From contig NZ_CP084530.1 of NCBI RefSeq assembly GCF_023704175.1, forward strand, positions 2,068,001 through 2,132,000: a stretch of 64,000 nt of DNA, given 5' to 3'. Both the position numbers and the translations under genes were made by a program. This stretch comes from Paenibacillus sp. YPG26 (lineage in GTDB: Bacteria; Bacillota; Bacilli; Paenibacillales; Paenibacillaceae). The notes beneath the pieces are model-generated. The model worked only from the letters and a program-made list of their open reading frames with translations. It did not search any database and was not told the DNA's origin. Below, one piece after another: positions 15,372 through 34,395 of this stretch (within the stretch, counting starts at the first letter, position 1; the number at the start of each line of letters is the position of its first letter).

Positions 15372-15485
15372 ATGGAACATCCCTCCAATAATAGTGTAGC
15401 TATCACACTGCTATTCGCATTATATCATCCATCTTACCTGGATAATCAGATGGGCAAATAAAAGATACCCCATAGCCGAACTCCC

Positions 15486-17772: not shown

Positions 17773-18321
17773 TTAATTAGCTGAGTCTTCCCGCCATTGT
17801 CTTCGAATTTGCTCCACAGCAGCCAGAGCATTCCCGTCTTCCAGGATGTCGCCCGGCCGGTTCGCCTTGCCTAGGATATATCCTTCATACCTCGTGCCCG
17901 TAAAATCAAAAATGTACTGAAACTGTTGAACCAGCGGAAGTCCCTTAAGATGGGGCTCATCATCACCAATGCCGATCACCCATGCCGATTTGCCCCGGAG
18001 CTTCGCAAGAAATCCGTCCCTGTCTTCCCGTAGTGACTGAGACCAGCGGTCAATGAACGTTTTTGTAAGCCCGGATGCCCCATACCAATAGATGGGCGTG
18101 GCAAAAACAAACTTATCCTGTGCCAGCACACGATCTATAACAGTGCGATAATCGTCTTCGGGATATGGTTCTTTATCGGTATGACGGTAATCCTTAATCG
18201 GCTCGATATTATAATCGGCCAAATGAATATGATCGGCTTCGAATCCTTCCGTTAACCGTTTGGCTAACTGTTCCGAGTTACCGTTTCTTCTCGAACTTCC
18301 GTAAATGACGGCTATGCCCAT
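17773..18321 (-). CDS. NADPH-dependent FMN reductase family protein
   Basis: 182 residues. The flavodoxin-like FMN motif is GSSRRNGNSEQLAKR at the N-terminus, followed by FATPIYWYGASGLTKTFIDRW, the family's second flavin-contact region. It is the last gene of the carrier-protein operon and overlaps the ATP-grasp ligase by 10 bases. It could reduce a quinone or flavin, or supply reduced flavin for a tailoring step; no monooxygenase partner is seen in the cluster, so its role in the pathway is open. Confidence 0.88.
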   Translation of the reverse strand: MGIAVIYGSSRRNGNSEQLAKRLTEGFEADHIHLADYNIEPIKDYRHTDKEPYPEDDYRTVIDRVLAQDKFVFATPIYWYGASGLTKTFIDRWSQSLREDRDGFLAKLRGKSAWVIGIGDDEPHLKGLPLVQQFQYIFDFTGTRYEGYILGKANRPGDILEDGNALAAVEQIRRQWREDSAN

Positions 18322-19580
18322 AAGTTAGCACCCACCCTTTCCTGATTCCGATAGACGATCTTCAATCCATCAAGCAGGGATAGCGCTGTTCGTTTGGCTT
18401 CATCCGGCGTATCGCCTGCGACTATAAAATAAGCGAGCCGGTCATCCGAACTTTTGGCCTGGGCAATTTGATCGCCAGCCTCCACTAAGATATGCGTACG
18501 CACGACAGCCGGATGCTTAGACAGCAGCTCGAACCCTTCAATTCGTTCAAGTACACCATCACTTTCCGCTGTAATATAAGCGATTGTGGCCGCCCGGACG
18601 TGCTTCTTCTCAATAGAGATCGGACTGTCCAGATAGTAATTAACCGTCGCTTCAAAAATATCAACACCGAAAGCCAGCACCAACAGATCCGATGAAATGT
18701 TATCCCCGCCAGGTCTGCCATTCACTTCGATAATCCGGGGGCCGGAAGACGTAAGCTTTACCTCGACATGACTAGGTCCGTTCGTAAGCCCGATCGCTTT
18801 AAGCGCATCGACAGCAGTCTTGATTATTTCGTCCTGGCGTTCGGTATATGACGGGGATGGCAGCGTATGAAGCGTCTCAACGAAATAGGGCAGAGGCGTC
18901 GTCAGCTTCTCGGTCACGGCCGCGAATAATGAATTACCATTTTGCAAGAACAGCTCTACACTGAATTCCGGTCCTTGCAAATATTGTTCGATCAAGTACT
19001 CCTCCCGCACTTTGAAATCCATATACGTCACTTTGAAATTGACAATAACGTCCATGGCCCTCTGCAGCTCAGCCTCATCGTTAATAAAATAGACATTTTG
19101 GCTGCTGGCACAGTTGGTCGGCTTCAGAACGACTGGATACCCGATCTCCCCAGCCGCTTGGGCTGCTTCCTCGAATGTTTTTAATTTGCGGAATTTCGCA
19201 CTAGGCACCCCGTGTTCGGCATACGCCTGTCTCGCCAAATCCTTGTTCCTCGATTTCAGAGCCGCTTCATAGGGTACACTCCGCAGACCAAGCCGCTGCG
19301 CGACTTTGGCTGTCAAGTGGGAAGCGTAATCCGTTGCAGGGATAAGCGCATCCAGCTTACCTGCATAGGGTGATTCGGCTATTGCTTGATAGAGCGAATC
19401 CTCATCCCGTATATCCGCAACAATCAAGTCATGGTAGATGCCTTCATACCCGTATTTCTGTGGATTGTCCGTGGACGAGACGACCGAAATGACCCGATGC
19501 CCCTGTTCGTAGGCTGCTTTGGCGAAGCTGACACCATAAAAGCTAGGCTCGACAAACGCAACCGTTTTAACCGTTGACAT
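18312..19580 (-). CDS. ATP-grasp ligase, L-amino-acid ligase type
   Basis: About 422 residues from ATG 19580, eight bases after AAAGGAG; the longer frame to 19625 lacks a binding site. Layout is N-terminal pre-ATP-grasp domain (AFVEPSFYGVSFAKAAYEQGH), ATP-grasp core (YPVVLKPTNCASSQNV, EQYLQGPEFSVE) and the metal-binding strand IIEVNGRPGGDNI. A C-terminal domain resembles those of L-amino-acid ligases such as BacD of bacilysin synthesis. It would join a carboxylate, through an acyl phosphate, to an amino acid. In a cluster that makes an unusual diamino acid, a dipeptide-forming role is the simplest reading, and the adjacent MFS gene parallels bacD-bacE. Substrates are inferred. Confidence 0.85.
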   Translation of the reverse strand: MSTVKTVAFVEPSFYGVSFAKAAYEQGHRVISVVSSTDNPQKYGYEGIYHDLIVADIRDEDSLYQAIAESPYAGKLDALIPATDYASHLTAKVAQRLGLRSVPYEAALKSRNKDLARQAYAEHGVPSAKFRKLKTFEEAAQAAGEIGYPVVLKPTNCASSQNVYFINDEAELQRAMDVIVNFKVTYMDFKVREEYLIEQYLQGPEFSVELFLQNGNSLFAAVTEKLTTPLPYFVETLHTLPSPSYTERQDEIIKTAVDALKAIGLTNGPSHVEVKLTSSGPRIIEVNGRPGGDNISSDLLVLAFGVDIFEATVNYYLDSPISIEKKHVRAATIAYITAESDGVLERIEGFELLSKHPAVVRTHILVEAGDQIAQAKSSDDRLAYFIVAGDTPDEAKRTALSLLDGLKIVYRNQERVGANLWA

Positions 19581-19640
19581 GTTCTTCACTCCTTTAAGCT
19601 GCAGAGCAACCTGCAGCATAAGCATAATTTGGAAGAAAAC

Positions 19641-20855
19641 TTACACCTCTATCGTCTGTTTCTGCGTGGACTGGCTGTTCAGGAAGTAATAGACGAGGAG
19701 TCCGGCGAACATCAGACCTGCCATCAGGATAAAGCCGAGTCCTGGCGAGTATCGGTCGATGATGACACCAAGTCCCGTAGCTGAGACCGTCTGCAGCAAT
19801 AAGGAGATCCCCATCCAGACCGAAGTCGCGCGCCCCATATATGATTTCGAGACCGACTCCATAAGCGCTGTTGTGATCAGAATGCGTAGCGAGGAATTCG
19901 TTAGACCTATGAGTATGCAGCCTACATAGAGCAGAATGATCGTCGAATTAAAGGAGATGGCCACCAGATTCAACACAGATACTAGGAAAATGATCAGAAT
20001 TGTCCCATGCTGTGTGAGCCTTCTCGCCAAGGGGACAGCCAGGAAACCGGACAGCAACCCTCCTAATCCGTAGCACATATCAGACAGACCGAATACGACC
20101 GAATCTCCTCGAACGGCTGTGCTGACATAACCAGGCAGTACGACATTGAACACCATCGTTGTCACTAGCGGAATGATGGATACGATACCCAATACAAATA
20201 TAGAAGGCCTCTTCGCCAAATATCCAATACCCGCCTTAAATGATTCGAAGAATGACGCTTCAGCTTCTTCAGAAGGCATGGCCGAATAGGAGATCCTGCT
20301 TAGGAAGAGGCTGCTGATCAGAAAAGCCGCGGCATTCAGCAGCAAGATCGCTTCAAAGCCGATATAATTGTATAAAAAGCCTGATAGTCCTCCAGCCATG
20401 AACATGCCGACCTGCAGGCTGATCTCGATCAAAGAATTGCCATGGATCAGCTCTTCCTCAGGCAGAAGCTCCTGCACGAGGCTCCGTGAAGCCGACATGT
20501 AGAGCGCCCATCCCATGCCGTTGACCACAGCGAACGCGTACAAATATTCAACGTGGAATCCGGTGCTCCAGAAGGCACCAGCAATCAGCAGCAGTGCGGC
20601 AGCTCTAACAATGTTAGCCCACAGCAGAATCGTCTTTCGGTTCCACTTATCGACGAAGGTCCCGGCGAACGCCGATATAAGAAACCCCGCAATCACATTA
20701 AGTGAGAGCATTAGCCCGACAGCGGTCATCGAACCCGTCCGGTCCATTAGATACCAATTGGCGCCGATCGTGCTCATGCCCACGCCGAAGCCGGATATTA
20801 TGTCCGAGATAAAATAGTTGCGAAACCTGCCAGTCTTTAGCACGCTAAATACCAT
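19641..20855 (-). CDS. MFS transporter, probable product exporter
   Basis: 404 residues with 10-12 membrane segments. MFS motif A appears as GTFVDKWNRKTIL. The N-terminus FRNYFISDIISGFGVGMSTIGANWYLM places it with the EntS/MFS_3-like group of small-molecule exporters. The start overlaps the transketolase C-terminal-half gene by 11 bases, with AGGAGG five bases before the ATG. It lies inside the carrier-protein operon directly before the ATP-grasp ligase, so export of the final product, and thus self-protection, is the likely role. Confidence 0.87.
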   Translation of the reverse strand: MVFSVLKTGRFRNYFISDIISGFGVGMSTIGANWYLMDRTGSMTAVGLMLSLNVIAGFLISAFAGTFVDKWNRKTILLWANIVRAAALLLIAGAFWSTGFHVEYLYAFAVVNGMGWALYMSASRSLVQELLPEEELIHGNSLIEISLQVGMFMAGGLSGFLYNYIGFEAILLLNAAAFLISSLFLSRISYSAMPSEEAEASFFESFKAGIGYLAKRPSIFVLGIVSIIPLVTTMVFNVVLPGYVSTAVRGDSVVFGLSDMCYGLGGLLSGFLAVPLARRLTQHGTILIIFLVSVLNLVAISFNSTIILLYVGCILIGLTNSSLRILITTALMESVSKSYMGRATSVWMGISLLLQTVSATGLGVIIDRYSPGLGFILMAGLMFAGLLVYYFLNSQSTQKQTIEV

Positions 20856-21786
20856 TCGAACCTCCTAATAGAGACTGGATTTGCCGACGCAGCGGCTCTA
20901 AGCCAAAGCCTAAATCGGCCAGCACTTCCGCATGCGTCCCCCCATAAGTCGGCCACTGGTCTCCACAGTTATGCGAATAGACCGGCTGCTCGGGCATTAA
21001 TAATGCCAAATAAGAAGCGGTTCCACCGGTCGCCCGATGCTCCTCAACGACAAGGAAGCGATCAGCTAACCCTTTTAACGGCTCTACATACGATTTCAAA
21101 CTTTGACTATCGATGTAACAAGCATGAACGTGAACGACACTTTCGTACTCTTGGGTTAACGTCTTGCATAGCTCCGTCGCTTGCTCTCCGACCGAAATCA
21201 GACACAGCTCCGCACGGACCTCCGCCCTCCTGTCTTCAACGAGCAATTGACTGCATGAGATATTGGATGCTCGCGGCAAGCTTTCGAACGCTTCATTGCG
21301 GGATAGACGAATATAATAAGGTTCCTCGGAGGCGGCCGCTTCGCGGATGACCCTCCTTGTCTCTTCTTCCCCATGCGGGCAGGCAATCCGGATATTCTGG
21401 AAGGACTGGATGACCGCGATGTCCTCAAGGGCATGATGGGTCGTACCAAACCATCCGCCTGACACTCCGCCGTACGGAGCGACAAGCTTCACATTTTTGC
21501 CCATATAACCCATCGACAGCTTCACGCTCTCCGCTGCCCGCAATGCCGCGAAGGCGGCGAAGGTCGAGAAGAACGGAACATATCCCGCTTCGGCAAGTCC
21601 GGCCGCGATATCCACGCCCGCAAGCTCGGCGATGCCGAGATTGACAAAACGTTCCGGGTAACGGCTCTGGAATGGATGGTTTTTGCCCCCTAGATCCGCT
21701 TCGAGACAAATGATTCGACTTTCAGTCTCCGCAAGCTTGGCAAGCTCGTCTTTATAGGCATCACGCCCTGACAACGTCGTAGTCAT
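20845..21786 (-). CDS. Transketolase C-terminal half (pyrimidine-binding and C-terminal domains)
   Basis: About 313 residues from ATG 21786, which overlaps the stop of the N-terminal-half gene as ATGA. The sequence shows the Pyr-domain pattern: RFVNLGIAELAGVDIAAGLA, APYGGVSGGWFGTTHHALEDIA and PYYIRLSRNE. The C-terminal domain ends before LGGSNGI. Split transketolases form a heteromer with the N-terminal half to bind thiamine diphosphate. In this operon the pair probably adds a two-carbon ketol unit to the aldehyde carried on the amino-group carrier protein, as proposed for the vazabitide pathway. General pentose phosphate function is the alternative, but the operon context argues against it. 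Confidence 0.9.
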   Translation of the reverse strand: MTTTLSGRDAYKDELAKLAETESRIICLEADLGGKNHPFQSRYPERFVNLGIAELAGVDIAAGLAEAGYVPFFSTFAAFAALRAAESVKLSMGYMGKNVKLVAPYGGVSGGWFGTTHHALEDIAVIQSFQNIRIACPHGEEETRRVIREAAASEEPYYIRLSRNEAFESLPRASNISCSQLLVEDRRAEVRAELCLISVGEQATELCKTLTQEYESVVHVHACYIDSQSLKSYVEPLKGLADRFLVVEEHRATGGTASYLALLMPEQPVYSHNCGDQWPTYGGTHAEVLADLGFGLEPLRRQIQSLLGGSNGI

Positions 21787-22601
21787 GATAGCTTCACCTT
21801 CCATCTTTTCGCCAGATTGGCGGGGATTTTGGCATAGTGTGCATCTGGATTTCCTTCGAGGGCGGCAACACCTTTACCTTTGACTGTATGGGCTAGAACG
21901 GCAAGAGGCTTCTCGCTATCTGGCGTAAGAGCGGAGAAAATGGCCTCATGCTGGTGTCCGTCAACCTCCCGAACTGCGAACCCGAACGCCTCGAAGCGTT
22001 CCCTCAGATTGCGGATCGGCGATATGTCGTCAACGTACCCATCGTTCTGCCCGCCATTGCAATCGACAATATAGATGAAATTTGAAAGCGACCTCGCTTG
22101 TGCGATTTGTGCCGTTTCCCAGATCAACCCTTCCTGCAGCTCACCATCTCCGCCGATCACGATGCCAAGTCCTCGGGTTCCCTGAAGCTTTTGAGCTAGA
22201 GCCCAGCCCGCCGCATAAGCAACGCCGTGCCCCAGACTCCCCGTGGCAAAAGGAATACCCGGCAGCTTATGGTTCGGGTGCCCCGTATAGAGCGAGCCTT
22301 GCTGACCATAGCTTTCCGCCGGATTTGAGGGCAGCTTCCCATGCACGTAAAGTGCCGCATATAGAGCCGCCGCCGCATGCCCTTTGCTAAGGATGACGGA
22401 GCTGTACTCATCATGCCCGTATTTCGCCAAAGCTGTGACCAGCAGGTCGATAGCCGATAGACTTCCCCCAATGTGGCAGCCTGTCGGTGTGGCCGCCATG
22501 TCGATAATTAGCTTCCTCGCTTCTTTCGCCAGATTGGCCAGATCAATGGATAACGGAATCGTACCTTCCTGTTCATGCAATACTGGTATCGACTGTTCCA
22601 T
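21783..22601 (-). CDS. Transketolase N-terminal half (ThDP pyrophosphate-binding domain)
   Basis: 272 residues. The thiamine diphosphate motif GDG...N is seen as GGDGELQEGLIWETA with CNGGQNDGY about 25 residues on. Other transketolase hallmarks are ILSKGHAAAALYA and TGHPNHKLPGI, with catalytic His residues. GGAGG lies five bases before the ATG, which immediately follows the stop of the LysZ-LysK fusion gene. It pairs with the C-terminal half encoded next. Split forms are common among archaeal and secondary-metabolism transketolases. Confidence 0.92.
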   Translation of the reverse strand: MEQSIPVLHEQEGTIPLSIDLANLAKEARKLIIDMAATPTGCHIGGSLSAIDLLVTALAKYGHDEYSSVILSKGHAAAALYAALYVHGKLPSNPAESYGQQGSLYTGHPNHKLPGIPFATGSLGHGVAYAAGWALAQKLQGTRGLGIVIGGDGELQEGLIWETAQIAQARSLSNFIYIVDCNGGQNDGYVDDISPIRNLRERFEAFGFAVREVDGHQHEAIFSALTPDSEKPLAVLAHTVKGKGVAALEGNPDAHYAKIPANLAKRWKVKLS

Positions 22602-24449
22602 TCAGTCCTCCGTTCGCAGTCGGAACCATTCGTTAACTGCTTCTCTCAGAATGGCTCTCGATGATTCTACTTCCTCGTAATGCAAATATTCGTCGTTCGT
22701 ATGATCCAGGCTGGAATCGCCCGGGCCATAAGCTACCATCGGAACGGTAGACCAAGCCGAAGCCAGAGTATTCATGTCACTCGTTCCCCGTTTCTTCAAG
22801 TAACGGATCGACTTCCCGTGTTTGGCGAAGCTTCGGACAAAAGCCTTCACCAGCGTATCCGAACGCGGGTTAGCGAAACCAGGAGTGGCGCGAAGCACCT
22901 CGACCGTAATGGCGTCGCCGAAAGAGAGGTCGACTTTGTCTGTATATCCATTGCCCGCTTCAGGCGATATCCTGAAATTCAAGATGGCCGTGACCGTGAT
23001 ATAACCACGCTCGTTGCGATGCTCGATATCAATTAAGGACGACAAGCCTTGCGGATCAATATCCCGGACTCTGCCGCGAATGTCTGCCGCAACTTGATAC
23101 AGCTCGTCGATAGCGCTCACACTGTCCTTCGCCGCCGTATGCTCCTGTGCGCGCCTAATGGTTATCCGCAGCTTGAACAATCCGTAATACCCTAGAGTCA
23201 AGCTGTCTTCGCCGCTCGGTTCACCAATGATGACCGCATCCGCCCGGTAATGATCCCGGATGTAGAATGCGCCTTTGGAAGACGAGATCTCTTCCTCCAC
23301 GGCTCCAATGACGAGCAGCGAGCCGTTCTCGGGCACCTCCGCTTCCTCCAGCATGTGGACGAAGTTGACGAAGCTGCCTTTGGCGTCCACGACACCTCTT
23401 CCCGCAAGTCCTTCAGTGTCCGACCTTACGGGCCACACGTAAGGCACAGTGTCGAGATGGCCTAGAAGCAACAGCGTATGAGGACCGGCGCCTTTGCGGA
23501 ACACAACGTTGCCGGCATCGTCAACGTGCCCGGTCACCGATGGATCTTGGATCTCGCCCAGCAAGAACCGGGCAAGCTCGTGTTCATCTTTGGATACGGA
23601 GGGGATGCGGGCAACCTTGTTAAGCAGCTCGAAGGCGGCAGGACCGCGCTCCGCTTGCCAGAACCATGTCCGGCCGCCATGTTCAAGCGAATGCGGACCG
23701 GAAATATTCACATCGCAGATCCCCCGTTCTGCCGCCAGCCTTGCCGCCCTTACCTTCTGCTTCATACGTCCCTTGACGGAGATGAGCTCTTCTTCTCCGT
23801 AGACATCCGGAATGGTTGAGTCTTCGTCTTCGATATCCTGCAGCAGCCCCGCCGTGCCAGTCACGAAGCGCAGATGATGCGCTTCGAGCTCTACGGCAAG
23901 TTCGGCCGCCAACACGTCAGCGTCGATATTGATATAGGATGCGAGCTCGGGATCCCAGATTGGAGGCGTCAAGCATACGACATCGAAATGATTCAGTGCA
24001 TCTTGCAGGAACGAGGAATGACTGCCCGTATATTGTCCGAAGAACGAATCGCGCACAATAACGGTCTTTCCTCCTTGAACAGCCTTGATCGGTTTGGCCT
24101 TCCTGCCGAGCACAAGCCCGTTGTCGCCGCCAAGCTGCGCGAACGTGCTGAGCCCTTGTTCCTTCAATCGCTCCCGAACCGGAGTCAGGATATTCTCATA
24201 ATAGGCATCGCGGATATAGGGCAACTCCTCAGGGGAGCAATAGCGCACTTCATCACTGGATGGCAGCGTCAAGAAGGGCATTGGCCGCGACAGGTCTTCG
24301 TACTTCCGGCGTATCGCTTCCGCTCCGCCCGCGACGAGCAGCACCTGGTTCCCTCTTCGCGAGATGCGGCCAATCTCCTCGAAGATGCGTGGGTGATTGA
24401 CGATGGTACTGCTGCCAAGCTTGATAACATATAGACTGCCTTTGCTCAT
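22602..24449 (-). CDS. LysZ-LysK fusion: carrier-protein amino-acid kinase plus M20 carrier-protein hydrolase
   Basis: About 615 residues from ATG 24449, which shares one base with the LysY stop (TAATG). Residues 1 to about 265 are an acetylglutamate-kinase-like domain: VIKLGSS, LLVAGGAEAIRR, LGGDNGLVLGRK, INIDADVLAAELA, TGTAGLL and GRMKQKVRAA, as in LysZ. Residues about 270-615 are an M20 peptidase: metal ligands in LLGHLDTVP, GRGVVDAKG, GAVEEEISSSKG, IGEPSG and a late His in SLDHTNDEY, as in LysK. LysZ phosphorylates the side-chain carboxylate of the carrier-bound amino acid. LysK cuts the finished product from the carrier. Both active sites look intact. Having the second and last steps on one chain is unusual. 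Confidence 0.9.
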   Translation of the reverse strand: MSKGSLYVIKLGSSTIVNHPRIFEEIGRISRRGNQVLLVAGGAEAIRRKYEDLSRPMPFLTLPSSDEVRYCSPEELPYIRDAYYENILTPVRERLKEQGLSTFAQLGGDNGLVLGRKAKPIKAVQGGKTVIVRDSFFGQYTGSHSSFLQDALNHFDVVCLTPPIWDPELASYINIDADVLAAELAVELEAHHLRFVTGTAGLLQDIEDEDSTIPDVYGEEELISVKGRMKQKVRAARLAAERGICDVNISGPHSLEHGGRTWFWQAERGPAAFELLNKVARIPSVSKDEHELARFLLGEIQDPSVTGHVDDAGNVVFRKGAGPHTLLLLGHLDTVPYVWPVRSDTEGLAGRGVVDAKGSFVNFVHMLEEAEVPENGSLLVIGAVEEEISSSKGAFYIRDHYRADAVIIGEPSGEDSLTLGYYGLFKLRITIRRAQEHTAAKDSVSAIDELYQVAADIRGRVRDIDPQGLSSLIDIEHRNERGYITVTAILNFRISPEAGNGYTDKVDLSFGDAITVEVLRATPGFANPRSDTLVKAFVRSFAKHGKSIRYLKKRGTSDMNTLASAWSTVPMVAYGPGDSSLDHTNDEYLHYEEVESSRAILREAVNEWFRLRTED

Positions 24450-25498
24450 TATGGCCACGCTCCTTCGCCTTCTTGGGGCAGCCCTTCTTCCTCGGGGAAT
24501 CCGAAGTACAGATTGGCCGCCTGGACAGCTTGTCCCGCCGCTCCTTTAAGCAGGTTATCGATCGTCGCCAAGGACACGCAGTTTCTGCCTTCCACGTAAG
24601 CTCCAATCTCTGCAAAATTCGTGCCATTAACCGTCTTGATCATGGGAGTCCCGCTGCCGGCCGGGATGTAATGAAGAAACGGCTTGGCGGCATAGGCGCC
24701 ATAGAATGCTTTTCTCACATCAACAGCCGTTACGCCCTCTTTGAGCAAGGAATAGGAGGTCGCCATAATTCCCCGCGGCAAATCGAGACTGTATACTGAA
24801 AATTGAAGATCGACCGTACGTTCCAAATGGTAGGTCAGCGCATGTTCGATCTCCGGCTTATGCCGGTGTCCGTGCACTTTGTATGCCCGGAAGTTATTCG
24901 TGCGCTCGGCGTGATGCTCGCTCGTCGACTTGCCTCCGCCGCTTGAGCCGGTCTTGGCGTCCGTGATGACGCGTTCCTCAATCAGGTCATTCGCTACTAG
25001 AGGATATAAAGTATAGATCGTTGCCACAGCCATACATCCTGGCAGATTTACAACCTTCTTGCTCCGGTCGATCTCGCTGAACTCAGGTATGAAATAATGC
25101 CATCCGCCTTCGAAATCATGCTTCAGCGTCTCCGGGTAATGCCGCTGCAATAACGCGGTGTCGGTTATCCTGTAATCGCCGCTTACGTTGAAGATGTAGT
25201 CCGTGTGCTCGGCAACTTCACGGATGATCTTCGGCAGCTCACCCGTTGGCAGACAGGAGAACACGGCATCGAAATGCCCGTCCAGCTCAGAGACCCGGCT
25301 GAATTTGAGCCCTCCCGGCTTCTTCCTGTGGATAGATCCCGTGTAATATTTGTCTACTGGAAGTCCGGCGTTTGACTCCGATGAGACAAAGGTAACCTCG
25401 AATCCGGGATGCCTGCGGAGCAGCCTGTAGAGCTCGGCACCCGTGAACCCGCTGCCGCCAAGAATGGCCGCTTTCTTCAATTGCGACGCGCTGCTCAT
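24449..25498 (-). CDS. lysY: LysY: carrier-protein-linked acyl-phosphate reductase (ArgC-like)
   Basis: 349 residues. N-terminal NADP motif is ILGGSGFTGAELYRLL. The catalytic Cys155 is in NLPGCMAVAT, followed by SSGGGKSTSEHH and the catalytic His region GHRHKPEIEHAL. This is the N-acetyl-gamma-glutamyl-phosphate reductase/LysY family, which reduces an acyl phosphate to a semialdehyde. Since it lies between a LysZ-type kinase and LysW/LysX genes, the carrier-protein-bound form is the likely substrate and the product a carrier-linked glutamate (or aminoadipate) semialdehyde. It overlaps the aminotransferase gene as ATGA. Confidence 0.92.
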   Translation of the reverse strand: MSSASQLKKAAILGGSGFTGAELYRLLRRHPGFEVTFVSSESNAGLPVDKYYTGSIHRKKPGGLKFSRVSELDGHFDAVFSCLPTGELPKIIREVAEHTDYIFNVSGDYRITDTALLQRHYPETLKHDFEGGWHYFIPEFSEIDRSKKVVNLPGCMAVATIYTLYPLVANDLIEERVITDAKTGSSGGGKSTSEHHAERTNNFRAYKVHGHRHKPEIEHALTYHLERTVDLQFSVYSLDLPRGIMATSYSLLKEGVTAVDVRKAFYGAYAAKPFLHYIPAGSGTPMIKTVNGTNFAEIGAYVEGRNCVSLATIDNLLKGAAGQAVQAANLYFGFPEEEGLPQEGEGAWP

Positions 25499-26817
25499 CC
25501 TAACCTCGCATCTCTTTCGTAGACGACCTTCAAATCGCCGCTTTGCTCAGCGAGCTCGCGGATCTTATCCGGATTCGCATCCACCTTCTTAAATGCCAGG
25601 GCATAGGCCTGGATCCGCTCGTATTCGATCGGTGTCCGCAGTTCTCTGCATATTGTAAGCGTGCTGCGCAGCATGTTCAGCGTTACGGGGAACCGGTCCA
25701 GATCGTACCCGAAATCCTGCCGATCTGACAGCGAGAACGGATAACCATTGCCGAAGCCTCTCCTGTTCTTGAACGGAAGATGCCCCGGAATCGGTACGTT
25801 CTGCCATTCTCTAGCGAAGACGCCTTCCGCATGAATCAGCTGCTCTACCGCATGCTTGACCCGGTAATCCTCCAGATCTCCAAGTCCAAGCTGTTCCGGT
25901 GACAGCTTAACGCGATACATATTGTAGCTGTGTTTATAGCCTTCCGGGACGAAAGGACCGCTAAAGAGCTTCGTCTCCTTGAGTGCATTCGTCAAATAAT
26001 CGGCGTTACGCGCGCGGATCGCATCGTAATAAGGCAGCCGGTCCAGCTGGCTTATTCCAAAAGCCGCAGCGATCCAGGACATACGGTAATCGATGCCTGA
26101 TTCATTCAGGAACGTGAGTGCGCGCTGATAATCTTCCTTCTCCCGGAAGAACGCGATGCCTCCTTCGCCGCCGACGGGAAAGTTCTTGTCCGCCATCAGG
26201 CTCTGTCCCGCGCCATCTCCGATGGAGCCGGCTACGCGGCCGTCAATGGAGGCAGAATGGGCATGTGATGCATCTTCGACTAACCGCAGCGAATGCTTGT
26301 CCGCCAGTTGGCGCAAGGCATGCAGATCGGCAGGCAAGCCGTGCACATGGACGGGCATGATTGCTTTTGTCTTGCTGGTGATGGCTTGCTCCACCTTCGA
26401 AGGATCCAGGCAATACGTGACAGGATCGATATCCACGAATATCGGAATTGCTTTGGCGGCAACGACCGCTTGGGCGGTCGCGATGAAGGTGAAGGCAGGT
26501 ACAATGACTTCATCACCAGGCTCCACGCCAACTCCGACAAGCGCCAAGTGCAGACTCGATGTTCCGCTTGATGTGGCGATTGCGTAATTAGCACCCACGT
26601 AGCTGCGATACGCTTCCTGGAACTCTTCTACGACGCTGTCGCCATCCTGTTGAATGGAGACGAACATTTGAATAACGTCTTCTTTAGTGATAATGGGAAA
26701 GTTGGTTCTGCGGACATCTTCAGGAATGATCGAGGGTCCTCCATCTACAGCTAGTGGAGTCCATACCAATTCCTCGTTAGGCAGCTGGAGCGGTTTGCGG
26801 ATAAAATCAGTTTTCAT
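25495..26817 (-). CDS. DegT/DnrJ/EryC1-family PLP aminotransferase
   Basis: About 440 residues from ATG 26817, preceded by AAGGAGG; the frame upstream to 26934 is out of place inside the previous gene. Motifs of sugar/cyclitol aminotransferases: ATSSGTSSLHLAL (cofactor phosphate), GDEVIVPAFTFIATAQA, VEDASHAHSA (Asp for the pyridine N) and MADKNFPVGGEGG with the Schiff-base Lys211. It overlaps both the preceding miniature homologue and LysY by ATGA. In the proposed pathway it would place an amino group on the ketone formed by transketolase (C6 of a seven-carbon chain), as the DegT-type step of vazabitide-like pathways does. Substrate is inferred. Confidence 0.92.
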   Translation of the reverse strand: MKTDFIRKPLQLPNEELVWTPLAVDGGPSIIPEDVRRTNFPIITKEDVIQMFVSIQQDGDSVVEEFQEAYRSYVGANYAIATSSGTSSLHLALVGVGVEPGDEVIVPAFTFIATAQAVVAAKAIPIFVDIDPVTYCLDPSKVEQAITSKTKAIMPVHVHGLPADLHALRQLADKHSLRLVEDASHAHSASIDGRVAGSIGDGAGQSLMADKNFPVGGEGGIAFFREKEDYQRALTFLNESGIDYRMSWIAAAFGISQLDRLPYYDAIRARNADYLTNALKETKLFSGPFVPEGYKHSYNMYRVKLSPEQLGLGDLEDYRVKHAVEQLIHAEGVFAREWQNVPIPGHLPFKNRRGFGNGYPFSLSDRQDFGYDLDRFPVTLNMLRSTLTICRELRTPIEYERIQAYALAFKKVDANPDKIRELAEQSGDLKVVYERDARLG

Positions 26818-27476
26818 GAGGACGATTTCCTCCTTAGTAAAGAAATCTTGACACAAGCCGCCACGAGCGGGCTGAGCCTGTAATTGAACTGGACGGCCGG
26901 TTGAAGCTCCGGCTCGCTCTCCTCCTGCGTCCACATCGTCTGCAGGTCGAAGGCGCCGAAAATTTTGAGCCGTTCGGCCTTCTTCCAGATGAGCTCGTCA
27001 TTTGACGCGACCGCAGCAACCGGGCCAAATCCTAGTCCCGTGAAATCGAGGACAAGGACAGGTGACTGGACGGCGGAGCTGCGAACTTCCTGCTCTAACC
27101 GGTGAAGATTATGCTTATCCACTTTTATGGTGGAATAAGCGATCCCCGTGTAGGAATCTGCATGGAGCTGAATACCCAGCCACTTCGCGAATTTCTTTTC
27201 TTGCTCGCTGGCATGCTCAAGCCGCGCGGTCGAGCCATAACCGATGTCCTGACCCCAGAATGCTCCGTGCACAGCTCCCGTGAAGCTATTGAACAAAGAT
27301 ACGTGTTTGGTATTCGTGAGCTTGGCTATCGCCTTTTCCAGTCCTTTTAACTCATGGTCGTTCTTTTCGATACTCATAATAACGCCTGAGTTCAGCACTC
27401 TGGAGAGAACAAACGATAATGAAAAATAGTGTTCTTTCTCGATTGGAGCCGCTGGCTTCGTTATGGTGTCTCCCAT
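26814..27476 (-). CDS. Miniature DegT-like protein lacking the PLP lysine region
   Basis: 220 residues from ATG 27476 with GGGAGG 11 bases upstream. The first third matches the start of DegT aminotransferases (SRVLNSGVI, LEKAIAKLTNTKHVSLFNSFTGAVHGA). The last third resembles a later part of the same fold (ERLKIFGAF...FNYRLSPLVAACVKISLLRR). The middle, where DegT enzymes carry the Asp and the Schiff-base Lys, is short and shows neither motif, so it is probably not catalytic on its own. Its stop overlaps the start of the full-length aminotransferase (ATGA), which suggests equal synthesis and a heteromer. A non-catalytic subunit or a carrier-protein docking subunit is possible. Homology is by eye. 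Confidence 0.65.
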   Translation of the reverse strand: MGDTITKPAAPIEKEHYFSLSFVLSRVLNSGVIMSIEKNDHELKGLEKAIAKLTNTKHVSLFNSFTGAVHGAFWGQDIGYGSTARLEHASEQEKKFAKWLGIQLHADSYTGIAYSTIKVDKHNLHRLEQEVRSSAVQSPVLVLDFTGLGFGPVAAVASNDELIWKKAERLKIFGAFDLQTMWTQEESEPELQPAVQFNYRLSPLVAACVKISLLRRKSSS

Positions 27477-27499
27477 TCGCTATTGTTCCTCCCTTTATA

Positions 27500-28393
27500 C
27501 TATGAATTAACCGTAAGATTTACCTTGTTTGTGCTGCTAATCTTCTCCTTTACGTACTTGGCTATATGATAGGCGACATCAACCCCATGTATCTTCCATG
27601 ATTTCGCGAATTCCGGATTCTGGTTCACTTCGCATACGACATAACGAAGCTGTTGGTAATCGAAAAATAAATCAGCTCCATAAATGCCTTCTCCTAATAC
27701 GCCGACCAGATCCTTAGTGATCGCAGCGATCTCGCTGTTGATCTCGATCGGTTCAATCTCCGCGCCCAGATGTGTATTCGTCTTCCAATTCTCGGCTGAT
27801 ACCCGTCTGAAAGCAGCGATCGGCTTGTGTCCGACAATGACGACACGAATGTCGTAATCACCTTTCTCCACATATTCCTGCACAAGAACGGGGAACGATT
27901 GGTGGCTCGGATCAACCGATTCCCTGGCGGCGATCCATCCATCCAGGCATTCCTTGCCCGTCATCCTGGCGATACCCCGCCCCCATGAGGAGGTTGCGGG
28001 CTTAATGACACATAGATCCCCAAAGTCTGAAAGGGCGTCGTACAGCTTCGCTGGGGTGAAGGCAACTTGATAACGAGGCTGTGGGATGCCATGCTTCTCG
28101 AACACAATTGCCTGATGGATTTTATTCGTGCAAATGGTGATAGCTCTTGCCGAATTCAATGTCTCGAATCCGGCAAGCTCAAGTAGCTGGGAGCGGCTGA
28201 GCGCATTTTTTTGAGACAGGCACCGAATGAGCGCCAGCCCATTTGGCGGGACTTCTTCCCCTCCGACAGGCAGATCCATGGAGTCCAGATTCACTTGAAC
28301 ACGGATGCCGAGCTGGTCAAGATGGGAGGCGATGAGCTGCTCTTCTTCCCTTAGTTTCGTGACGCACATTAGAATCGTGCTATTGTTCTCCAT
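27500..28393 (-). CDS. lysX: LysX: ATP-grasp ligase loading the amino-group carrier protein
   Basis: About 297 residues from ATG 28393, ten bases after the LysW stop; the longer frame to 28588 only runs antiparallel in frame through lysW. It is a RimK/LysX-type ATP-grasp protein: LCVIKPATSSWGRGIARM (ATP lysine and glycine loop), VLVQEYVEKGDYDIRVVIVG, and the metal-binding CEVNQNPEFAKSW. LysX joins the alpha-amino group of glutamate or aminoadipate to the gamma-carboxyl of the carrier's C-terminal Glu. Immediate adjacency to lysW supports this strongly. Which amino acid is loaded cannot be read with confidence. Confidence 0.92.
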   Translation of the reverse strand: MENNSTILMCVTKLREEEQLIASHLDQLGIRVQVNLDSMDLPVGGEEVPPNGLALIRCLSQKNALSRSQLLELAGFETLNSARAITICTNKIHQAIVFEKHGIPQPRYQVAFTPAKLYDALSDFGDLCVIKPATSSWGRGIARMTGKECLDGWIAARESVDPSHQSFPVLVQEYVEKGDYDIRVVIVGHKPIAAFRRVSAENWKTNTHLGAEIEPIEINSEIAAITKDLVGVLGEGIYGADLFFDYQQLRYVVCEVNQNPEFAKSWKIHGVDVAYHIAKYVKEKISSTNKVNLTVNS

Positions 28394-28403
28394 GGGTGTA
28401 TAC

Positions 28404-28577
28404 CTACTCTCCCCAAGTTTCTTCGATTTCGGGAGCCAAAGCGATGGTGACACGGCTCGCTTCAACCTGGACTTCATGCTCCTGGCCGCAGGAATCGCAC
28501 TCCACAATCTCCCCTGTGGTCGCGCGTTCTTCAACCTCAATGTCCGACTTGCATACGAGACAGCTAAGATCTGCCAT
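28404..28577 (-). CDS. lysW: LysW-type amino-group carrier protein
   Basis: A 57-residue acidic protein too short for most ORF cut-offs. It starts at ATG 28577 with AGGAGG and AAGGAG just upstream and stops at 28404. Two zinc-binding pairs, CLVC (Cys6, Cys9) and CDSC (Cys27, Cys30), form the small beta zinc domain. The C-terminus is EETWGE, the LysW hallmark (EDWGE in Thermus) whose last Glu gamma-carboxyl is the attachment point. The acidic surface guides the pathway enzymes. It is followed ten bases later by LysX and further on by LysY and LysZ-LysK, so all partners are present. It shields the alpha-amino group while the side chain is rebuilt. Confidence 0.95.
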   Translation of the reverse strand: MADLSCLVCKSDIEVEERATTGEIVECDSCGQEHEVQVEASRVTIALAPEIEETWGE

Positions 28578-28640
28578 TCTCCTTGCACCTCCTATTGGTA
28601 TATAAAAAAATGTATTATAACGGAATGTATCCCTTATAAC
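28578..28640 (-). promoter_or_regulatory. Candidate internal promoter before lysW
   Basis: The 63-base gap between OppA and LysW holds a perfect TATAAT (28614-28619 on the minus strand), about 37 bases before the lysW start, but no good -35 at 17 bases. A small GTTATAAGGGATACATTCC-like hairpin and a T7 run also lie here, so part of the opp transcript could end while a second promoter starts the biosynthetic genes. Evidence is modest. Confidence 0.4.
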
Positions 28641-30290
28641 TTACTTGACCGCCAAATCCCACTCGTTCACGTTGTTGAACGTGCCAACATTCAGCGGCTT
28701 GCCTGCAAGGACATCCTTAGACACAACCTGCAGTCTCTTCTCGGAATAGACGGCCAGTGTCGGCACGTCCTCGTGCAGCACCTCTTGAAGACGGTTGTAA
28801 ATCTCGTGGCGCTTCGCCTCGTCGATTTCTTGTTCACCTTGGGCAATTAATTCGTCGACAACCGGATTGTTGTACCGGATTACGCTTTCGGGATCATCAC
28901 TTTTGTAAGTAGTAAAGTAAAGACTAGGTTCGATGTAATAGTCCCGGGTAAAAATCGTGATATCGTGTTCGCCTTTCTCAACTTTATCGATAAGTGTAGG
29001 GAAATCATATTGTTGAACATCGATTTGTAGCCCCACGGCTTCCAGGTTCTGCACCAAAATATCGGCAGCCTGTTCGCGGACCTTGTTGCCAATCGGGATG
29101 AGAAATGCTAGCTTCCGGCTCGAGTCGAAGCCGGCTTCCTGCAGCAGCTGCTTCGCTTTTTCGGGATCGTACGGGTAAGGGGTAATATCTTTATTGAAAT
29201 ACGGATGTGAGCTTGGAATGCCGCCGTCGATAATCTCCGCTTGCCCCTTAAGCAGCTGTTCTACAATAAGCGGCCGGTTGAGGGCGTAAGCGATCGCTTG
29301 ACGGACTTTCTTATTAGGCAGCTTCTCTACGTTGAAGAATAACTCTGCCGGCTCAGAAGCGGAGGCGGAAGTCACATTCACGTTGTCGAAGCTCTTCACT
29401 TTATCGTAATCCGTGATCGGAACGAGTCCGACCGGCAGTGAATTCATATGGACTTCTCCCGTCTGCAGCTGGGCAACCAGATTAGCTGCTGGCAGGACCT
29501 TAAAGAAGATCGAATCGATCTTGGGTGCGCCTAAATAGTACTTTTCATTTTTGGTAAGTTCGACATATTGACCTTGCTCGTAAGCGGCGAACCGGTATGG
29601 ACCGTTCGTGACGTCCGGCTTCTGGAAATAGGGATGTGTTGACAGCTTCGCAGGATCCACATCTTTCAAGAGATGCTCCGGCAAATAATAGACCTTCGCG
29701 CCAAATCGTTCGTTGAACACAAGAGGATCAATCGGTGTCTTGGCTTTGATCTCGAATGTATGCTTGTCGATGACATGAAGTCCTGCGATTTCCTTGACAC
29801 CTTTTCCAAGCTTGCCAAAGTCGTTCAGTCCTTCAATGAAGTTCAGCTTGAACGAGGTTTCTACATCGGCATGAAGCGCTAGCTTGAGTGTGAATGCCAC
29901 ATCCGCCGTTGTGAATGGGGTTCCATCATTCCACTTGGCATCCGGACGGAGCTTGATCGTGTAATTCAGCTTATCCTTCGTCTTGATCGATTCCGCAAGC
30001 TTGGGGATGAATTCAGCCGATTCGGTCACGTCAAGCAGCGCATCGTTAAGCAGTCCAATTGGGGCAAGCGATGCGGAATTGTCCTGTGTATTAATCTGAT
30101 TCAATGTGACAGGCGCGTTAACGATACCGATCGTCAACTTCTTCTTGCCTTGAGCTACCTTGGTCGTTGCTTGCTGTGTCGGCTGGTTCTGAGTACCTTT
30201 ATTCGCCTCGCTGGATTGACTGCATGCCGCAAGCAAGAGTATTGCAGCGGTAGAGATAATCAACAAGCTAAGTCGTCTGTATCGGTTCAT
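28641..30290 (-). CDS. oppA: Oligopeptide/dipeptide ABC transporter substrate-binding lipoprotein
   Basis: About 549 residues from ATG 30290, nine bases after GAAGGAG. A lipoprotein signal ends in LLLAAC, so it should be tethered to the outside of the membrane. The family 5 solute-binding pattern is present: KLTIGIVNAPVTLNQ at the start, YTIKLRPDAKWNDGTPFTTADVAFTL, ITNGPYRFAAYEQGQYVEL-like segments and AIAYALNRPLIVEQLL. It is the last gene of a five-gene Opp-type operon and lies next to the carrier-protein operon, so its ligand may be a peptide related to that pathway's product or precursor. Confidence 0.92.
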   Translation of the reverse strand: MNRYRRLSLLIISTAAILLLAACSQSSEANKGTQNQPTQQATTKVAQGKKKLTIGIVNAPVTLNQINTQDNSASLAPIGLLNDALLDVTESAEFIPKLAESIKTKDKLNYTIKLRPDAKWNDGTPFTTADVAFTLKLALHADVETSFKLNFIEGLNDFGKLGKGVKEIAGLHVIDKHTFEIKAKTPIDPLVFNERFGAKVYYLPEHLLKDVDPAKLSTHPYFQKPDVTNGPYRFAAYEQGQYVELTKNEKYYLGAPKIDSIFFKVLPAANLVAQLQTGEVHMNSLPVGLVPITDYDKVKSFDNVNVTSASASEPAELFFNVEKLPNKKVRQAIAYALNRPLIVEQLLKGQAEIIDGGIPSSHPYFNKDITPYPYDPEKAKQLLQEAGFDSSRKLAFLIPIGNKVREQAADILVQNLEAVGLQIDVQQYDFPTLIDKVEKGEHDITIFTRDYYIEPSLYFTTYKSDDPESVIRYNNPVVDELIAQGEQEIDEAKRHEIYNRLQEVLHEDVPTLAVYSEKRLQVVSKDVLAGKPLNVGTFNNVNEWDLAVK

Positions 30291-30353
30291 ACTATTACAC
30301 TCCTTCATCTTCTCTATCTATTTAACAGAATCTATTTGTCTTCGCCGGTATAG

Positions 30354-31235
30354 TTACGCCTTCGCATCAAGCGCATCGCGCAGGCCGTCCCCGACGAAGT
30401 TGACGGCCAATACGGCGATCAGGATCATGCATCCCGCAGGCATCCACAGCCACTGCTGCTCGGTTAATACAGTCAAGGACTGTGCATCGTGCAGCATGTT
30501 GCCAAGGCTCGCCTGGGGCGACTTCACTCCCATGCCGAGAAAGCTGAGTCCGGCTTCGCTCAGAATCGTGCCTGCTACGCCGAATGTCGCACTCACGATA
30601 ATGGGGCCAATAATGTTGGGCAGCATGTGGCGCAGAAGAATGCGCGGCGTACGGTAGCCGAGCGCAGCGCCCGCTTTTATGTAATCTTGCTCCTTCGCAG
30701 CCAATACACTTCCCCGCACAAGCATTGCAATCGTAGGCCACTTGAACAAAGCGAGCACAATCATAATCGTTGCAATGTCGGCACCGAGGATGCTGACGAT
30801 CACTAGCACAACCAGCATGTAAGGAAAGCTTAAAAAAATATCGGTGAGTCTCATAATGGTCATATCAAGCCAGCGTCCGTAGTAGCCAGCGGCCATACCT
30901 ACTATAGTTCCGAACGTTACATAGATCGCCACGGTAGTAAAGCCGATGAACAGAGAAATGCGGGTTCCGTAGAGCATACGGCTTAACACGTCCCGGCCTA
31001 CTTGATCAGTACCGAGCCAGTGAGCGGCCGAAGGCTTGGCACCGAACTCATTCATAACTTCATTGGGCGGATAAGGCGCCAGCCATGGGGCGAGCAAGGC
31101 GATCAGGATCAGAAGTATCGTGACAGCCAGACCCCAGACAGCAAGCTTGTGCTGCAAAAACTTTCTTTTAACCTGACGGACGTAACCTTCAATCCTTGTA
31201 TTCGACTGATCCCAAGGCAGCGTTGTTGCAGACAT
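30354..31235 (-). CDS. oppC: Oligopeptide ABC transporter permease, OppC type
   Basis: About 293 residues from ATG 31235, nine bases after GGGAGG; the upstream in-frame starts lack a site. N-terminal RQVKRKFLQHKLAVWGLAV is typical of OppC/DppC. The conserved HWLGTDQVGRDVLSRMLYGTRISL motif follows, and the cytoplasmic EAA loop includes AAKEQDYIKAGAALGYRTPRI. About six membrane helices. It partners OppB, with OppD and OppF as ATPases. Confidence 0.93.
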   Translation of the reverse strand: MSATTLPWDQSNTRIEGYVRQVKRKFLQHKLAVWGLAVTILLILIALLAPWLAPYPPNEVMNEFGAKPSAAHWLGTDQVGRDVLSRMLYGTRISLFIGFTTVAIYVTFGTIVGMAAGYYGRWLDMTIMRLTDIFLSFPYMLVVLVIVSILGADIATIMIVLALFKWPTIAMLVRGSVLAAKEQDYIKAGAALGYRTPRILLRHMLPNIIGPIIVSATFGVAGTILSEAGLSFLGMGVKSPQASLGNMLHDAQSLTVLTEQQWLWMPAGCMILIAVLAVNFVGDGLRDALDAKA

Positions 31236-31251
31236 CCTAAGCTTCCTCCCA

Positions 31252-32202
31252 TCATCCATAAGTAATGCGCGGATCGGCAGCCGCATACAACACATCCGTG
31301 AACAAGTTGATCAGCAGCACGACGCAGGCCGCTATAAGGTTAAGTCCCATTAGAACCGGGTAATCGCGTGACAGAATAGCCTCCATCGTCAACTGGCCGA
31401 TTCCAGGCCATTGGAATACTTGCTCGATGACAATGCTGCCGCCGAGGAGCAATGGAATCTCTGCTCCGACTACGGCAATCACCGGAATTAGCGCATTACG
31501 CAGCGCATGCTTATTCGTCACCACAAGTTCCCGCAATCCCTTCGCTCTGGCCGTACGTAAGAAATCTTGATCCAGCACTTCCAGCATACTGGCCCGGACA
31601 TAACGCACCTTCTTCCCTGCGATAGCGGCTCCTAATACTGTTACCGGTAAGATCATATGCAGAAGAACATCGCCTGTTCCACCATCACCGCCTAGAGTCG
31701 AAATGCCCCCGGTTGGCAGCCATTTCAGCTGTATCCCCGTTATGTAGATCAGTCCGAGCCCTAGGAAGAAGGGCGGAATGGAGATCCCGAGGAAGGTCAT
31801 TCCCGTCAGAAAGTAATCCAGCTTGGAATTCCGCTTCACGGCGCTAATAACGCCGACAGGAATCGCAATGAGCAATCCGATTAATAAAGATGCCGCTGCA
31901 AGCAGTAATGTCGGACCAATTCTCTTGCCGATTAACTCGGAGACCGGGGCATAACTGCTGAAGGAGTAACCCAGATCACCTCTGAGTATACCTCCTAGCC
32001 AATTCGCGTACTGCACGTATAGGGGATCGTTAAGACCCAGCTTTTCCCGCTTTAACTCAAGCAGTTCCTTCGGAATATTAGGATTGATTAACATGTCTAC
32101 TGGATTACCAGGCGCCAAATTCATGATGAGGAAGCTGAGTACCGTAATGCCGAAGAAGACAGGGACCGCGATGAAGAGCCTCCTGACGATATAAGAGCCC
32201 AA
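31252..32202 (-). CDS. oppB: Oligopeptide ABC transporter permease, OppB type
   Basis: 316 residues, starting with TTG at 32202, six bases after a near-perfect AGGAGGTG. The N-terminus (SYIVRRLFIAVPVFFGITVL) and FLIMNLAPGNPVDML are typical of OppB/DppB. The EAA-loop region reads VLDQDFLRTARAKGLRE. About six membrane helices. Spacing to OppC is 16 bases and to OppF 23 bases, so these genes form one transcription unit. Confidence 0.93.
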   Translation of the reverse strand: MGSYIVRRLFIAVPVFFGITVLSFLIMNLAPGNPVDMLINPNIPKELLELKREKLGLNDPLYVQYANWLGGILRGDLGYSFSSYAPVSELIGKRIGPTLLLAAASLLIGLLIAIPVGVISAVKRNSKLDYFLTGMTFLGISIPPFFLGLGLIYITGIQLKWLPTGGISTLGGDGGTGDVLLHMILPVTVLGAAIAGKKVRYVRASMLEVLDQDFLRTARAKGLRELVVTNKHALRNALIPVIAVVGAEIPLLLGGSIVIEQVFQWPGIGQLTMEAILSRDYPVLMGLNLIAACVVLLINLFTDVLYAAADPRITYG

Positions 32203-32225
32203 TTACGTCACCTCCTCCCTTTCTC

Positions 32226-34243: not shown

Positions 34244-34342
34244 CCGCCCTGTTCCAGATTGTTAGAGTCATTTATCTTATAATTCCAATGAGTTTAATAA
34301 ACTTTATATCAAAAGGATACCTTACCAGGATTTATTTGGATA

Positions 34343-34372: not shown

Positions 34373-34395
34373 TCTAATCGCCGGATCAGACAGCA

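What the first reader, a model, noticed from the sequence alone, without database searches (positions are those of the whole stretch)
17773..28577. LysW-type amino-group carrier protein biosynthetic operon with split transketolase, DegT aminotransferase and ATP-grasp ligase
Eleven co-directional, overlapping genes combine LysW, LysX, a LysZ-LysK fusion and LysY with two transketolase halves, a DegT aminotransferase, an amino-acid ligase and an MFS exporter. Established knowledge: LysW-type carriers serve lysine or arginine synthesis in Thermus and archaea, and in Streptomyces (vazabitide A) a carrier-bound glutamate semialdehyde is extended by transketolase and transaminated to 2,6-diamino-5,7-dihydroxyheptanoic acid (DADH). 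This operon holds every step of that logic. Inference: a Bacillales operon making DADH or a close relative, then joined into a dipeptide by the BacD-like ligase. No sulfotransferase or ring-forming gene is visible, so the product may stay acyclic.
Basis: partly seen in the sequence, partly recalled or inferred. Interest (0 to 1): 0.95.

Follow-up and report, generated by a model that had tools for sequence, protein, structure and literature searches.

The report
LysW-carrier operon for unusual dipeptide
A compact set of eleven genes, found in very different bacteria, looks built to make an unusual sugar-like amino acid while it is tethered to a small carrier protein, and probably to join it to another amino acid and export it; the end product has not been seen.

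Summary
In detail: eleven intact, co-directional, tightly packed genes at 17773-28577 (minus strand). One point was missed. The aminotransferase has two subunits: a lysine-bearing DegT (25495-26817) and a shorter DegT-like protein (26814-27476). Both are homologous to a solved [quoted passage not shown] (PDB 8Y96-8Y98), which is itself encoded by a copy of this operon.

I compared 40 further copies: mostly Paenibacillus and relatives, also a Clostridium bin, three Enterobacterales, and plasmids of Staphylococcus epidermidis, Pseudalkalibacillus and Streptomyces. The core keeps one order; ligase and exporter are in 39 of 40.

The host has separate lysine and arginine genes, so primary metabolism is unlikely. 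Best reading: glutamate is loaded on LysW, reduced to the semialdehyde, extended by two carbons by the split transketolase and transaminated to a 2,6-diamino-5,7-dihydroxyheptanoate (DADH)-type amino acid, then released, ligated to a dipeptide and exported. The C7 logic is known from vazabitide, azinomycin and ficellomycin. Different here: no NRPS or sulfotransferase in the operon, a kinase-hydrolase fusion, the two-subunit aminotransferase, and the wide spread. Product, stereochemistry and ligase partner are inferred only.

The parts
28404..28577 (-). LysW-type amino-group carrier protein, 57 aa, ends in ETWGE
   Evidence: PF21344 47 bits (cut-off 27), NCBIfam carrier models matched but under cut-off; solved LysW relatives
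27500..28393 (-). LysX-type ATP-grasp ligase that loads the amino acid on LysW (start codon chosen at 28393)
   Evidence: RimK and LysX_preATP_grasp; TIGR00768 over cut-off, TIGR02144 under it; solved LysX relatives; start read
26814..27476 (-). Small DegT-like aminotransferase subunit, 220 aa, no counterpart of the PLP-lysine motif seen
25495..26817 (-). Large DegT/DnrJ/EryC1/StrS aminotransferase subunit, Lys211 taken as the PLP lysine
   Evidence: PF01041 238.8 bits; homologous to 8Y96 chain A, 606 bits, and Fic25, 249 bits
24449..25498 (-). ArgC/LysY-type acyl-phosphate reductase
   Evidence: TIGR01850 282.4 bits, cut-off 233.6
22602..24458 (-). LysZ-LysK fusion: amino-acid kinase plus M20 hydrolase
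   Evidence: PF00696 at 10-250 and PF01546 at 330-609; TIGR01902 282.8 bits, cut-off 163.1
21783..22601 (-). Transketolase N-terminal half (thiamine diphosphate-binding)
   Evidence: PF00456; best solved relative is the N-terminal component of a split transketolase
20845..21804 (-). Transketolase C-terminal half (pyrimidine-binding)
   Evidence: PF02779
19641..20855 (-). MFS transporter, probable exporter
   Evidence: PF07690; TIGR00900 and EntS-type models under cut-off
18312..19625 (-). ATP-grasp L-amino acid ligase, probable dipeptide ligase
   Evidence: ATP-grasp_4 and LAL_C2; solved relatives BL00235 and BacD
17773..18321 (-). NADPH-dependent FMN reductase-like protein, role open
   Evidence: PF03358 71.7 bits; found in 34 of 40 loci

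Best explanation
A self-contained operon that makes a DADH-type C7 diamino-dihydroxy acid on a LysW-type carrier and turns it into an exported dipeptide. Steps: (1) LysX couples the amino group of glutamate to the C-terminal Glu of LysW; (2) the LysZ half of the fusion phosphorylates the side-chain carboxylate and LysY reduces it to the carrier-bound semialdehyde; (3) the split transketolase adds a two-carbon ketol unit; (4) the two-subunit DegT aminotransferase aminates the new C6 ketone; (5) the LysK (M20) half releases the free amino acid; (6) the LAL-type ATP-grasp ligase joins it to another amino acid; (7) the MFS protein exports it. The role of the flavin reductase is open. Shown here: gene content, order, homology, conserved residues, distribution. 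Inferred: every reaction, the glutamate starter, the C7 product and the dipeptide.
For: Family assignments. Four cysteines of the carrier kept in 40 of 40 rows, the terminal Glu in 38 rows with 2 gaps. The aminotransferase pair matches 8Y96 chains A (606 bits) and C (208 bits), titled a heterooligomeric aminotransferase from Serratia sp. ATCC 39006; the Prodigiosinella copy of the operon encodes chain C identically over 210 residues. The next best solved relative of the large subunit is Fic25, one entry of which is titled as a PLP-(5S,6S)-N2-acetyl-DADH adduct. Azinomycin and vazabitide reach DADH by the same logic (passages of PMC9570651, and PMC9303977). Ligase and exporter in 39 of 40 loci; the ligase has LAL_C2 and resembles BL00235 and BacD. 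The host has LysA and ArgJ and separate ArgC- and ArgB-like genes; the homocitrate synthase family stays under its cut-off (284.5 against 413.55 bits), which argues for glutamate rather than aminoadipate.
Against: No product, substrate or activity is known for any copy from what I could read. The Streptomyces camelliae copy lacks the ligase and the MFS gene, so the dipeptide step is not universal. The flavin reductase (34 of 40 loci) has no place in the scheme. Stereochemistry and ligase partner cannot be read from sequence. LysW is under the NCBIfam cut-offs for LysW carriers (56.2 against 75 bits; 30.6 against 53.2) and LysX under that for LysX (199 against 275.6), so both are divergent. His278 of the transketolase C half varies in 7 of 40 rows.
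Confidence: 0.7

Rival explanations
1. The operon makes and exports the free DADH-type amino acid; the ATP-grasp ligase does something else, for example a tailoring or resistance ligation.
For: The Streptomyces camelliae copy keeps the core but has no ligase or MFS match and has an amino acid permease instead.
Against: The ligase is in 39 of 40 loci and resembles dipeptide ligases.
Confidence: 0.15
2. The carrier is loaded with another acid, such as aminoadipate, or the ketol donor differs, giving a C8 or otherwise different amino acid.
For: LysX and LysW are divergent from the curated models and sequence does not fix the starter.
Against: Homocitrate synthase family not over its cut-off in the host; the known transketolase-type pathways start from glutamate.
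Confidence: 0.08
3. The product is a metallophore: exported by the MFS protein and taken up by the Opp-type importer encoded upstream, as with staphylopine (comparison recalled).
For: An Opp-type importer lies directly upstream in the window and an SBP match lies in the fetched flanks of 23 of 40 loci; enriched in carriers, 5 of 10 against 9 of 286.
Against: The importer scores best as Opp4 oligopeptide type, far above CntA (261 against 86 bits); nine genomes without the operon carry a strong homologue; no Fur-like match within 17773-34475 and no Zur-like match in the window.
Confidence: 0.05
4. The operon serves primary lysine or arginine synthesis.
For: LysW, LysX, LysY, LysZ and LysK homologues are those of the lysine and arginine carrier pathways.
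Against: Own LysA and ArgJ over cut-off, separate ArgC- and ArgB-like genes, homocitrate synthase under cut-off, LysW in only 3 of 40 genus genomes, and transketolase, ligase and exporter in the same operon.
Confidence: 0.02
5. A sulfotransferase elsewhere closes an aziridine, giving a ficellomycin- or vazabitide-like DNA alkylator; the nearby UvrA paralogue would be self-resistance.
For: UvrA paralogue at 13116-15380; large DegT related to Fic25.
Against: No sulfotransferase among the eleven products; no UvrA-like match in the downstream flanks of ten relatives or in L023.
Confidence: 0.04

Closest known systems
Operon of Serratia sp. ATCC 39006 (Prodigiosinella confusarubida, L052) with the solved aminotransferase 8Y96-8Y98
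   Same: The same eleven gene types; aminotransferase subunits 60% (large) and 49% (small) identical to the window's.
   Different: Flavin reductase stands first instead of last; other phylum. I could not read a paper on it.
Vazabitide A pathway (Hasebe et al. 2016; seen only as cited in PMC9570651 and PMC9303977)
   Same: LysW-type carrier leading to DADH.
   Different: There DADH enters an NRPS product; the window operon has no NRPS and has a dipeptide-type ligase. The vzb proteins themselves could not be compared here.
Azinomycin azabicycle pathway (passages of PMC9570651)
   Same: Kinase, reductase, two-part transketolase and aminotransferase leading to N-acetyl-DADH.
   Different: The amino group is acetylated there instead of carried by LysW; sulfation and aziridine closure follow.
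Ficellomycin aminotransferase Fic25 (8GYH-8GYJ)
   Same: Homologous to the large DegT subunit (249 bits); titled as DADH adduct.
   Different: Much more distant than 8Y96. That it needs no small subunit is not tested; only one molecule was listed for these entries.
Streptomyces sp. CL7 LysW-NRPS locus (L061)
   Same: LysW, LysX, LysY, kinase, M20, split transketolase and DegT in one region.
   Different: Several NRPS genes, separate kinase and M20 genes, no match to the small DegT.
Iso-maleimycin cluster of Streptomyces sp. QL37 (passages of PMC12022981)
   Same: A LysW orthologue and RimK-type ligase needed for a specialised product.
   Different: Different enzymes and product class.
L-amino acid ligases BL00235 and BacD
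   Same: Ligase homology over most of the protein, LAL_C2 domain.
   Different: Substrates of the window's ligase unknown.

Membership tests
LysW/AmCP-mediated DADH-type pathway | LysW-type carrier with C-terminal Glu | tested here: met
   PF21344 over cut-off, ends in ETWGE; under the two NCBIfam carrier cut-offs
LysW/AmCP-mediated DADH-type pathway | LysX, kinase, reductase and M20 hydrolase acting on the carrier | tested here: met
   Homologues present by family match; action on the carrier itself not tested
LysW/AmCP-mediated DADH-type pathway | Transketolase pair and DegT aminotransferase in the same cluster | tested here: met
LysW/AmCP-mediated DADH-type pathway | Product is carrier-bound DADH | not testable with these tools
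   needs metabolite or enzyme assays
Azabicycle (ficellomycin/vazabitide) class | Sulfotransferase for aziridine closure in the cluster | tested here: not met
   None among the eleven operon products by Pfam; the rest of the genome was not searched
Vazabitide-type NRPS cluster | NRPS genes in the cluster | tested here: not met
   None among the eleven products
Heterooligomeric aminotransferase of the 8Y96 type | Large DegT subunit plus small DegT-like subunit, both homologous to 8Y96 chains | tested here: met
   complex formation itself not tested
L-amino acid ligase (LAL) | ATP-grasp with LAL_C2 domain | tested here: met
   PF13535 113.5 and PF18603 70.8 bits, both over cut-off; dipeptide formation not tested
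LysW lysine/arginine primary pathway | Host depends on it for lysine or arginine | tested here: not met
   Own LysA and ArgJ over cut-off, ArgC- and ArgB-like genes beside ArgJ; dependence itself needs a mutant

The most novel reading that the evidence does not exclude
The product is a dipeptide whose DADH residue mimics diaminopimelate: DADH has the same C7 2,6-diamino acid skeleton, with one carboxyl reduced and C5 hydroxylated. The dipeptide would enter target cells through oligopeptide importers, be hydrolysed inside, and the freed amino acid would block peptidoglycan or lysine enzymes. This would be a horizontally spread, NRPS-free Trojan-horse antimetabolite class, carried even by a Staphylococcus epidermidis plasmid. 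The skeleton comparison is my own reasoning and no call tested activity. Weakly in its favour: an Opp4-like oligopeptide importer lies next to many Paenibacillus copies.
Probability: 0.1. Interest if true: 0.85.

Novelty: new variant of a known kind. Interest (0 to 1): 0.6.

Why it matters
The LysW/AmCP routes to specialised amino acids that I could read about come from Streptomyces. A minimal NRPS-free operon in Paenibacillus, Enterobacterales and on a Staphylococcus plasmid would extend them to other hosts, some of them easy to work with. Eleven genes would then carry the whole route from glutamate to an exported small peptide. It also gives a natural setting for the solved two-subunit aminotransferase of Serratia sp. 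ATCC 39006, which no paper that I saw discusses.

Tried and rejected
Primary lysine or arginine pathway: rejected. Metallophore reading: kept only as a weak rival. A Fur-like pattern had 8 matches at up to 3 mismatches in the window (4.37 expected), none within 17773-34475, and a Zur-like pattern had none. The importer scores best as Opp4 type, not CntA, and 9 of 286 order genomes without the small DegT carry a strong SBP homologue.

Alkylator reading: no match to the UvrA paralogue or the ankyrin protein in the downstream flanks fetched from ten relatives or in L023; the ABC-F protein gave one weak hit there (23%). Upstream, ABC-F hits of 25-31% occur in 4 of 40 loci and may be other ATPases. 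No Rfam family matched 15000-37000. A profile comparison of the two DegT alignments gave no useful alignment (probability 0.6%), so the missing PLP lysine of the small subunit rests on reading alignment A1 and on the fold match. A single-sequence fold of the small DegT was useless (mean pLDDT 31.7); the one with 21 sequences was usable (74.0).

Several lists were capped, so I saw only the top rows (for example 40 of 121, 40 of 517, 15 of 47, 15 of 63). No row that I saw concerned this operon, 8Y96, or a LysW natural-product operon outside Streptomyces. The library lacks most subscription journals; the depositors of 8Y96 may well have described the Serratia pathway.
Full report
The thing itself. 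Eleven intact genes run on the minus strand from 28577 to 17773 with gaps and overlaps of +23 to -22 nt. In order: LysW, LysX, a short DegT-like protein, a full DegT aminotransferase, an ArgC/LysY reductase, an amino-acid kinase fused to an M20 hydrolase (LysZ-LysK), transketolase N half, transketolase C half, an MFS transporter, an ATP-grasp ligase with an L-amino acid ligase C-terminal domain, and a flavin reductase. LysW begins after AGGAGGTGCAAGGAGA and ends in ETWGE (for relatives, for the window). It is the only LysW in the genome at a meaningful score; a second hit has E 0.23.

The aminotransferase has two subunits. The large one holds a DKNFPVGGEGG motif whose lysine (K211) I take as the PLP lysine, kept in 40 of 40 rows. 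In the small one (220 aa) I see no counterpart of that motif, though its predicted fold matches DegT-type chains. Both match PDB 8Y96-8Y98, titled a heterooligomeric aminotransferase from Serratia sp. ATCC 39006. The source operon is in hand: the Prodigiosinella confusarubida chromosome (L052) carries the same eleven gene types and encodes chain C identically over 210 residues. That this name is the current one of Serratia sp. ATCC 39006 is recalled; the identical protein fits it. The ligand code PPE in the title of 8Y98 is, as I recall and not from a call, a PLP-glutamate adduct. The next solved relative of the large subunit is Fic25 of Streptomyces ficellus (249 bits), one entry of which is titled as a PLP-(5S,6S)-N2-acetyl-DADH adduct.

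How common and how conserved. In the window's genus 3 of 40 genomes have a LysW match. In its order 10 of 296 genomes, in 8 of 48 genera, have the small DegT. A scan of one genome per species with two peptide patterns gave 31 loci; plasmid records gave 3 of 72,556. LysX, both DegT genes, LysY, LysZK and both transketolase halves are found in 40 of 40, LysW in 39 (not in the frame-broken L054), ligase and MFS in 39 each (not in Streptomyces camelliae), flavin reductase in 34. The loci were collected by a DegT subunit, so the presence of DegT is by construction. The order from LysW to the transketolase C half is the same in all; MFS, ligase and flavin reductase change places in some. L054 was left out of the residue counts and of the tree.

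Origin and movement. In a tree of 42 large DegT rows, the Prodigiosinella and Kosakonia rows lie with the S. epidermidis plasmid row and two rows of the window's own family (support 100/99), and this set joins a Clostridium row among Bacillota rows. The simplest reading is transfer from Bacillota into Enterobacterales. The S. epidermidis and Streptomyces rows are long branches and their places are unsure, as the tool warned; many inner forks are weakly supported (15 of 39 starred). The two Streptomyces NRPS-type rows (L061, L062) form a separate, very long-branched pair.

Not primary metabolism. The host has LysA and ArgJ over their cut-offs. Beside ArgJ lie ArgC- and ArgB-like stretches only 34% and 26% identical to LysY and the LysZ half. 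The homocitrate synthase family is under its cut-off. Most genus members lack LysW (37 of 40).

How it most likely works. In azinomycin and vazabitide, glutamate is activated, reduced to the semialdehyde, extended by a transketolase pair and transaminated to DADH (passages of PMC9570651, and PMC9303977). By analogy the operon should make a LysW-bound DADH-type amino acid and release it. The ligase is nearest among solved structures to BL00235 (114 bits), then BacD (79 bits), so a dipeptide is likely. None of these reactions was tested.

What differs from known clusters. The Streptomyces sp. CL7 locus (L061) has several NRPS genes and separate kinase and M20 genes. The small DegT has no match at E 1e-5 in L061 or L062, and the best LysZK match there covers only the M20 half (a weaker kinase match would not have been shown). 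The window operon has no NRPS and no sulfotransferase among its eleven products.

The importer. An Opp4-like oligopeptide importer (SBP, two permeases, two ATPases; 28641-34243) lies directly upstream and points the same way. An SBP match lies in the fetched flanks of 23 of 40 loci. Of these, L045 is only 29% identical, L028 lacks the middle, L046 keeps an end fragment, and three (L018, L046, L047) are on the other strand. In the genus a strong SBP homologue occurs in exactly the 3 of 40 genomes with LysW, but in G039 it lies some 60 kb away and is only 58% identical. In the order, SBP homologues of 700 bits or more occur in 5 of 10 carriers and 9 of 286 others (Fisher p 2.4e-5); with the looser E 1e-130 limit it is 5 of 10 and 25 of 286 (p 0.0014). 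This assumes that searches drew the same 296 genomes, takes no account of kinship, and only four candidates per genome were scored. So the importer is enriched but neither necessary nor exclusive, and I do not count it as part of the operon.

A possible control element. Between the SBP stop and LysW lies an imperfect inverted repeat, TTATAAGGGATACATTCCGTTATAA (28615-28639), whose right end overlaps a TATAAT box. A repeat with like ends lies 35-40 nt before LysW in 16 of 40 rows (window included, L054 not); single-sequence scores of 8-11 of 12 stand only a little above simple shuffles (about 8). Operator, terminator of the importer transcript or RNA hairpin: open.

Verdict. The operon is real, conserved, present in several phyla and very probably makes a DADH-type compound. 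The chemistry is a known kind; the compact form with dipeptide-type ligase and two-subunit aminotransferase is a variant that I did not find described in the rows I saw. The 2024 structure release shows that others have studied at least one enzyme of the Serratia copy.

Noticed in passing
window 34475-35953 (-): Lsa-family ABC-F ribosomal protection protein just over its NCBIfam cut-off (753.4 against 750 bits). Only weak hits (25-31%) in the upstream flanks of 4 of 40 operon loci.
   Followed up: partly
window 13116-15380 (-): Short UvrA paralogue (754 aa, over the TIGR00630 cut-off) about 2.4 kb downstream of the operon. UvrA-like proteins are, as I recall, self-resistance factors in some alkylator clusters, but none is found in the downstream flanks of ten relatives.
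   Followed up: partly
window 28615-28639: Imperfect inverted repeat overlapping a TATAAT box 37 nt before LysW; a similar one in 16 of 40 rows.
   Followed up: partly
L053:434-7036 (Kosakonia oryzendophytica): A TonB-dependent siderophore receptor-like gene, a Fhu/Fec-type permease and a weak FhuF reductase match lie upstream of the operon copy, some under their cut-offs. Enterobacter sp. EA-1 (L054) has similar-looking, broken reading frames there.
   Followed up: no
L058 (NZ_CP043848.1, 54-kb plasmid of Staphylococcus epidermidis NCCP 16828): A full copy of the operon, with a LysR-type regulator beside it, sits on a plasmid from a blood isolate.
   Followed up: partly
L028:8542-8827 (Paenibacillus curdlanolyticus): The importer SBP next to the operon has no match to residues 157-487 of the window protein, while the biosynthetic genes match over most of their length.
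   Followed up: no
L042:19152-19703: Where other copies have the flavin reductase, this one has a different protein that looks flavodoxin-like by eye.
   Followed up: no
G335, G378, G601 (L066-L068): Three genomes of one other family of the phylum hold LysW-like carriers that score higher than the window's; 15 of 398 phylum genomes pass the LysW cut-off. Their neighbourhoods were not read.
   Followed up: no
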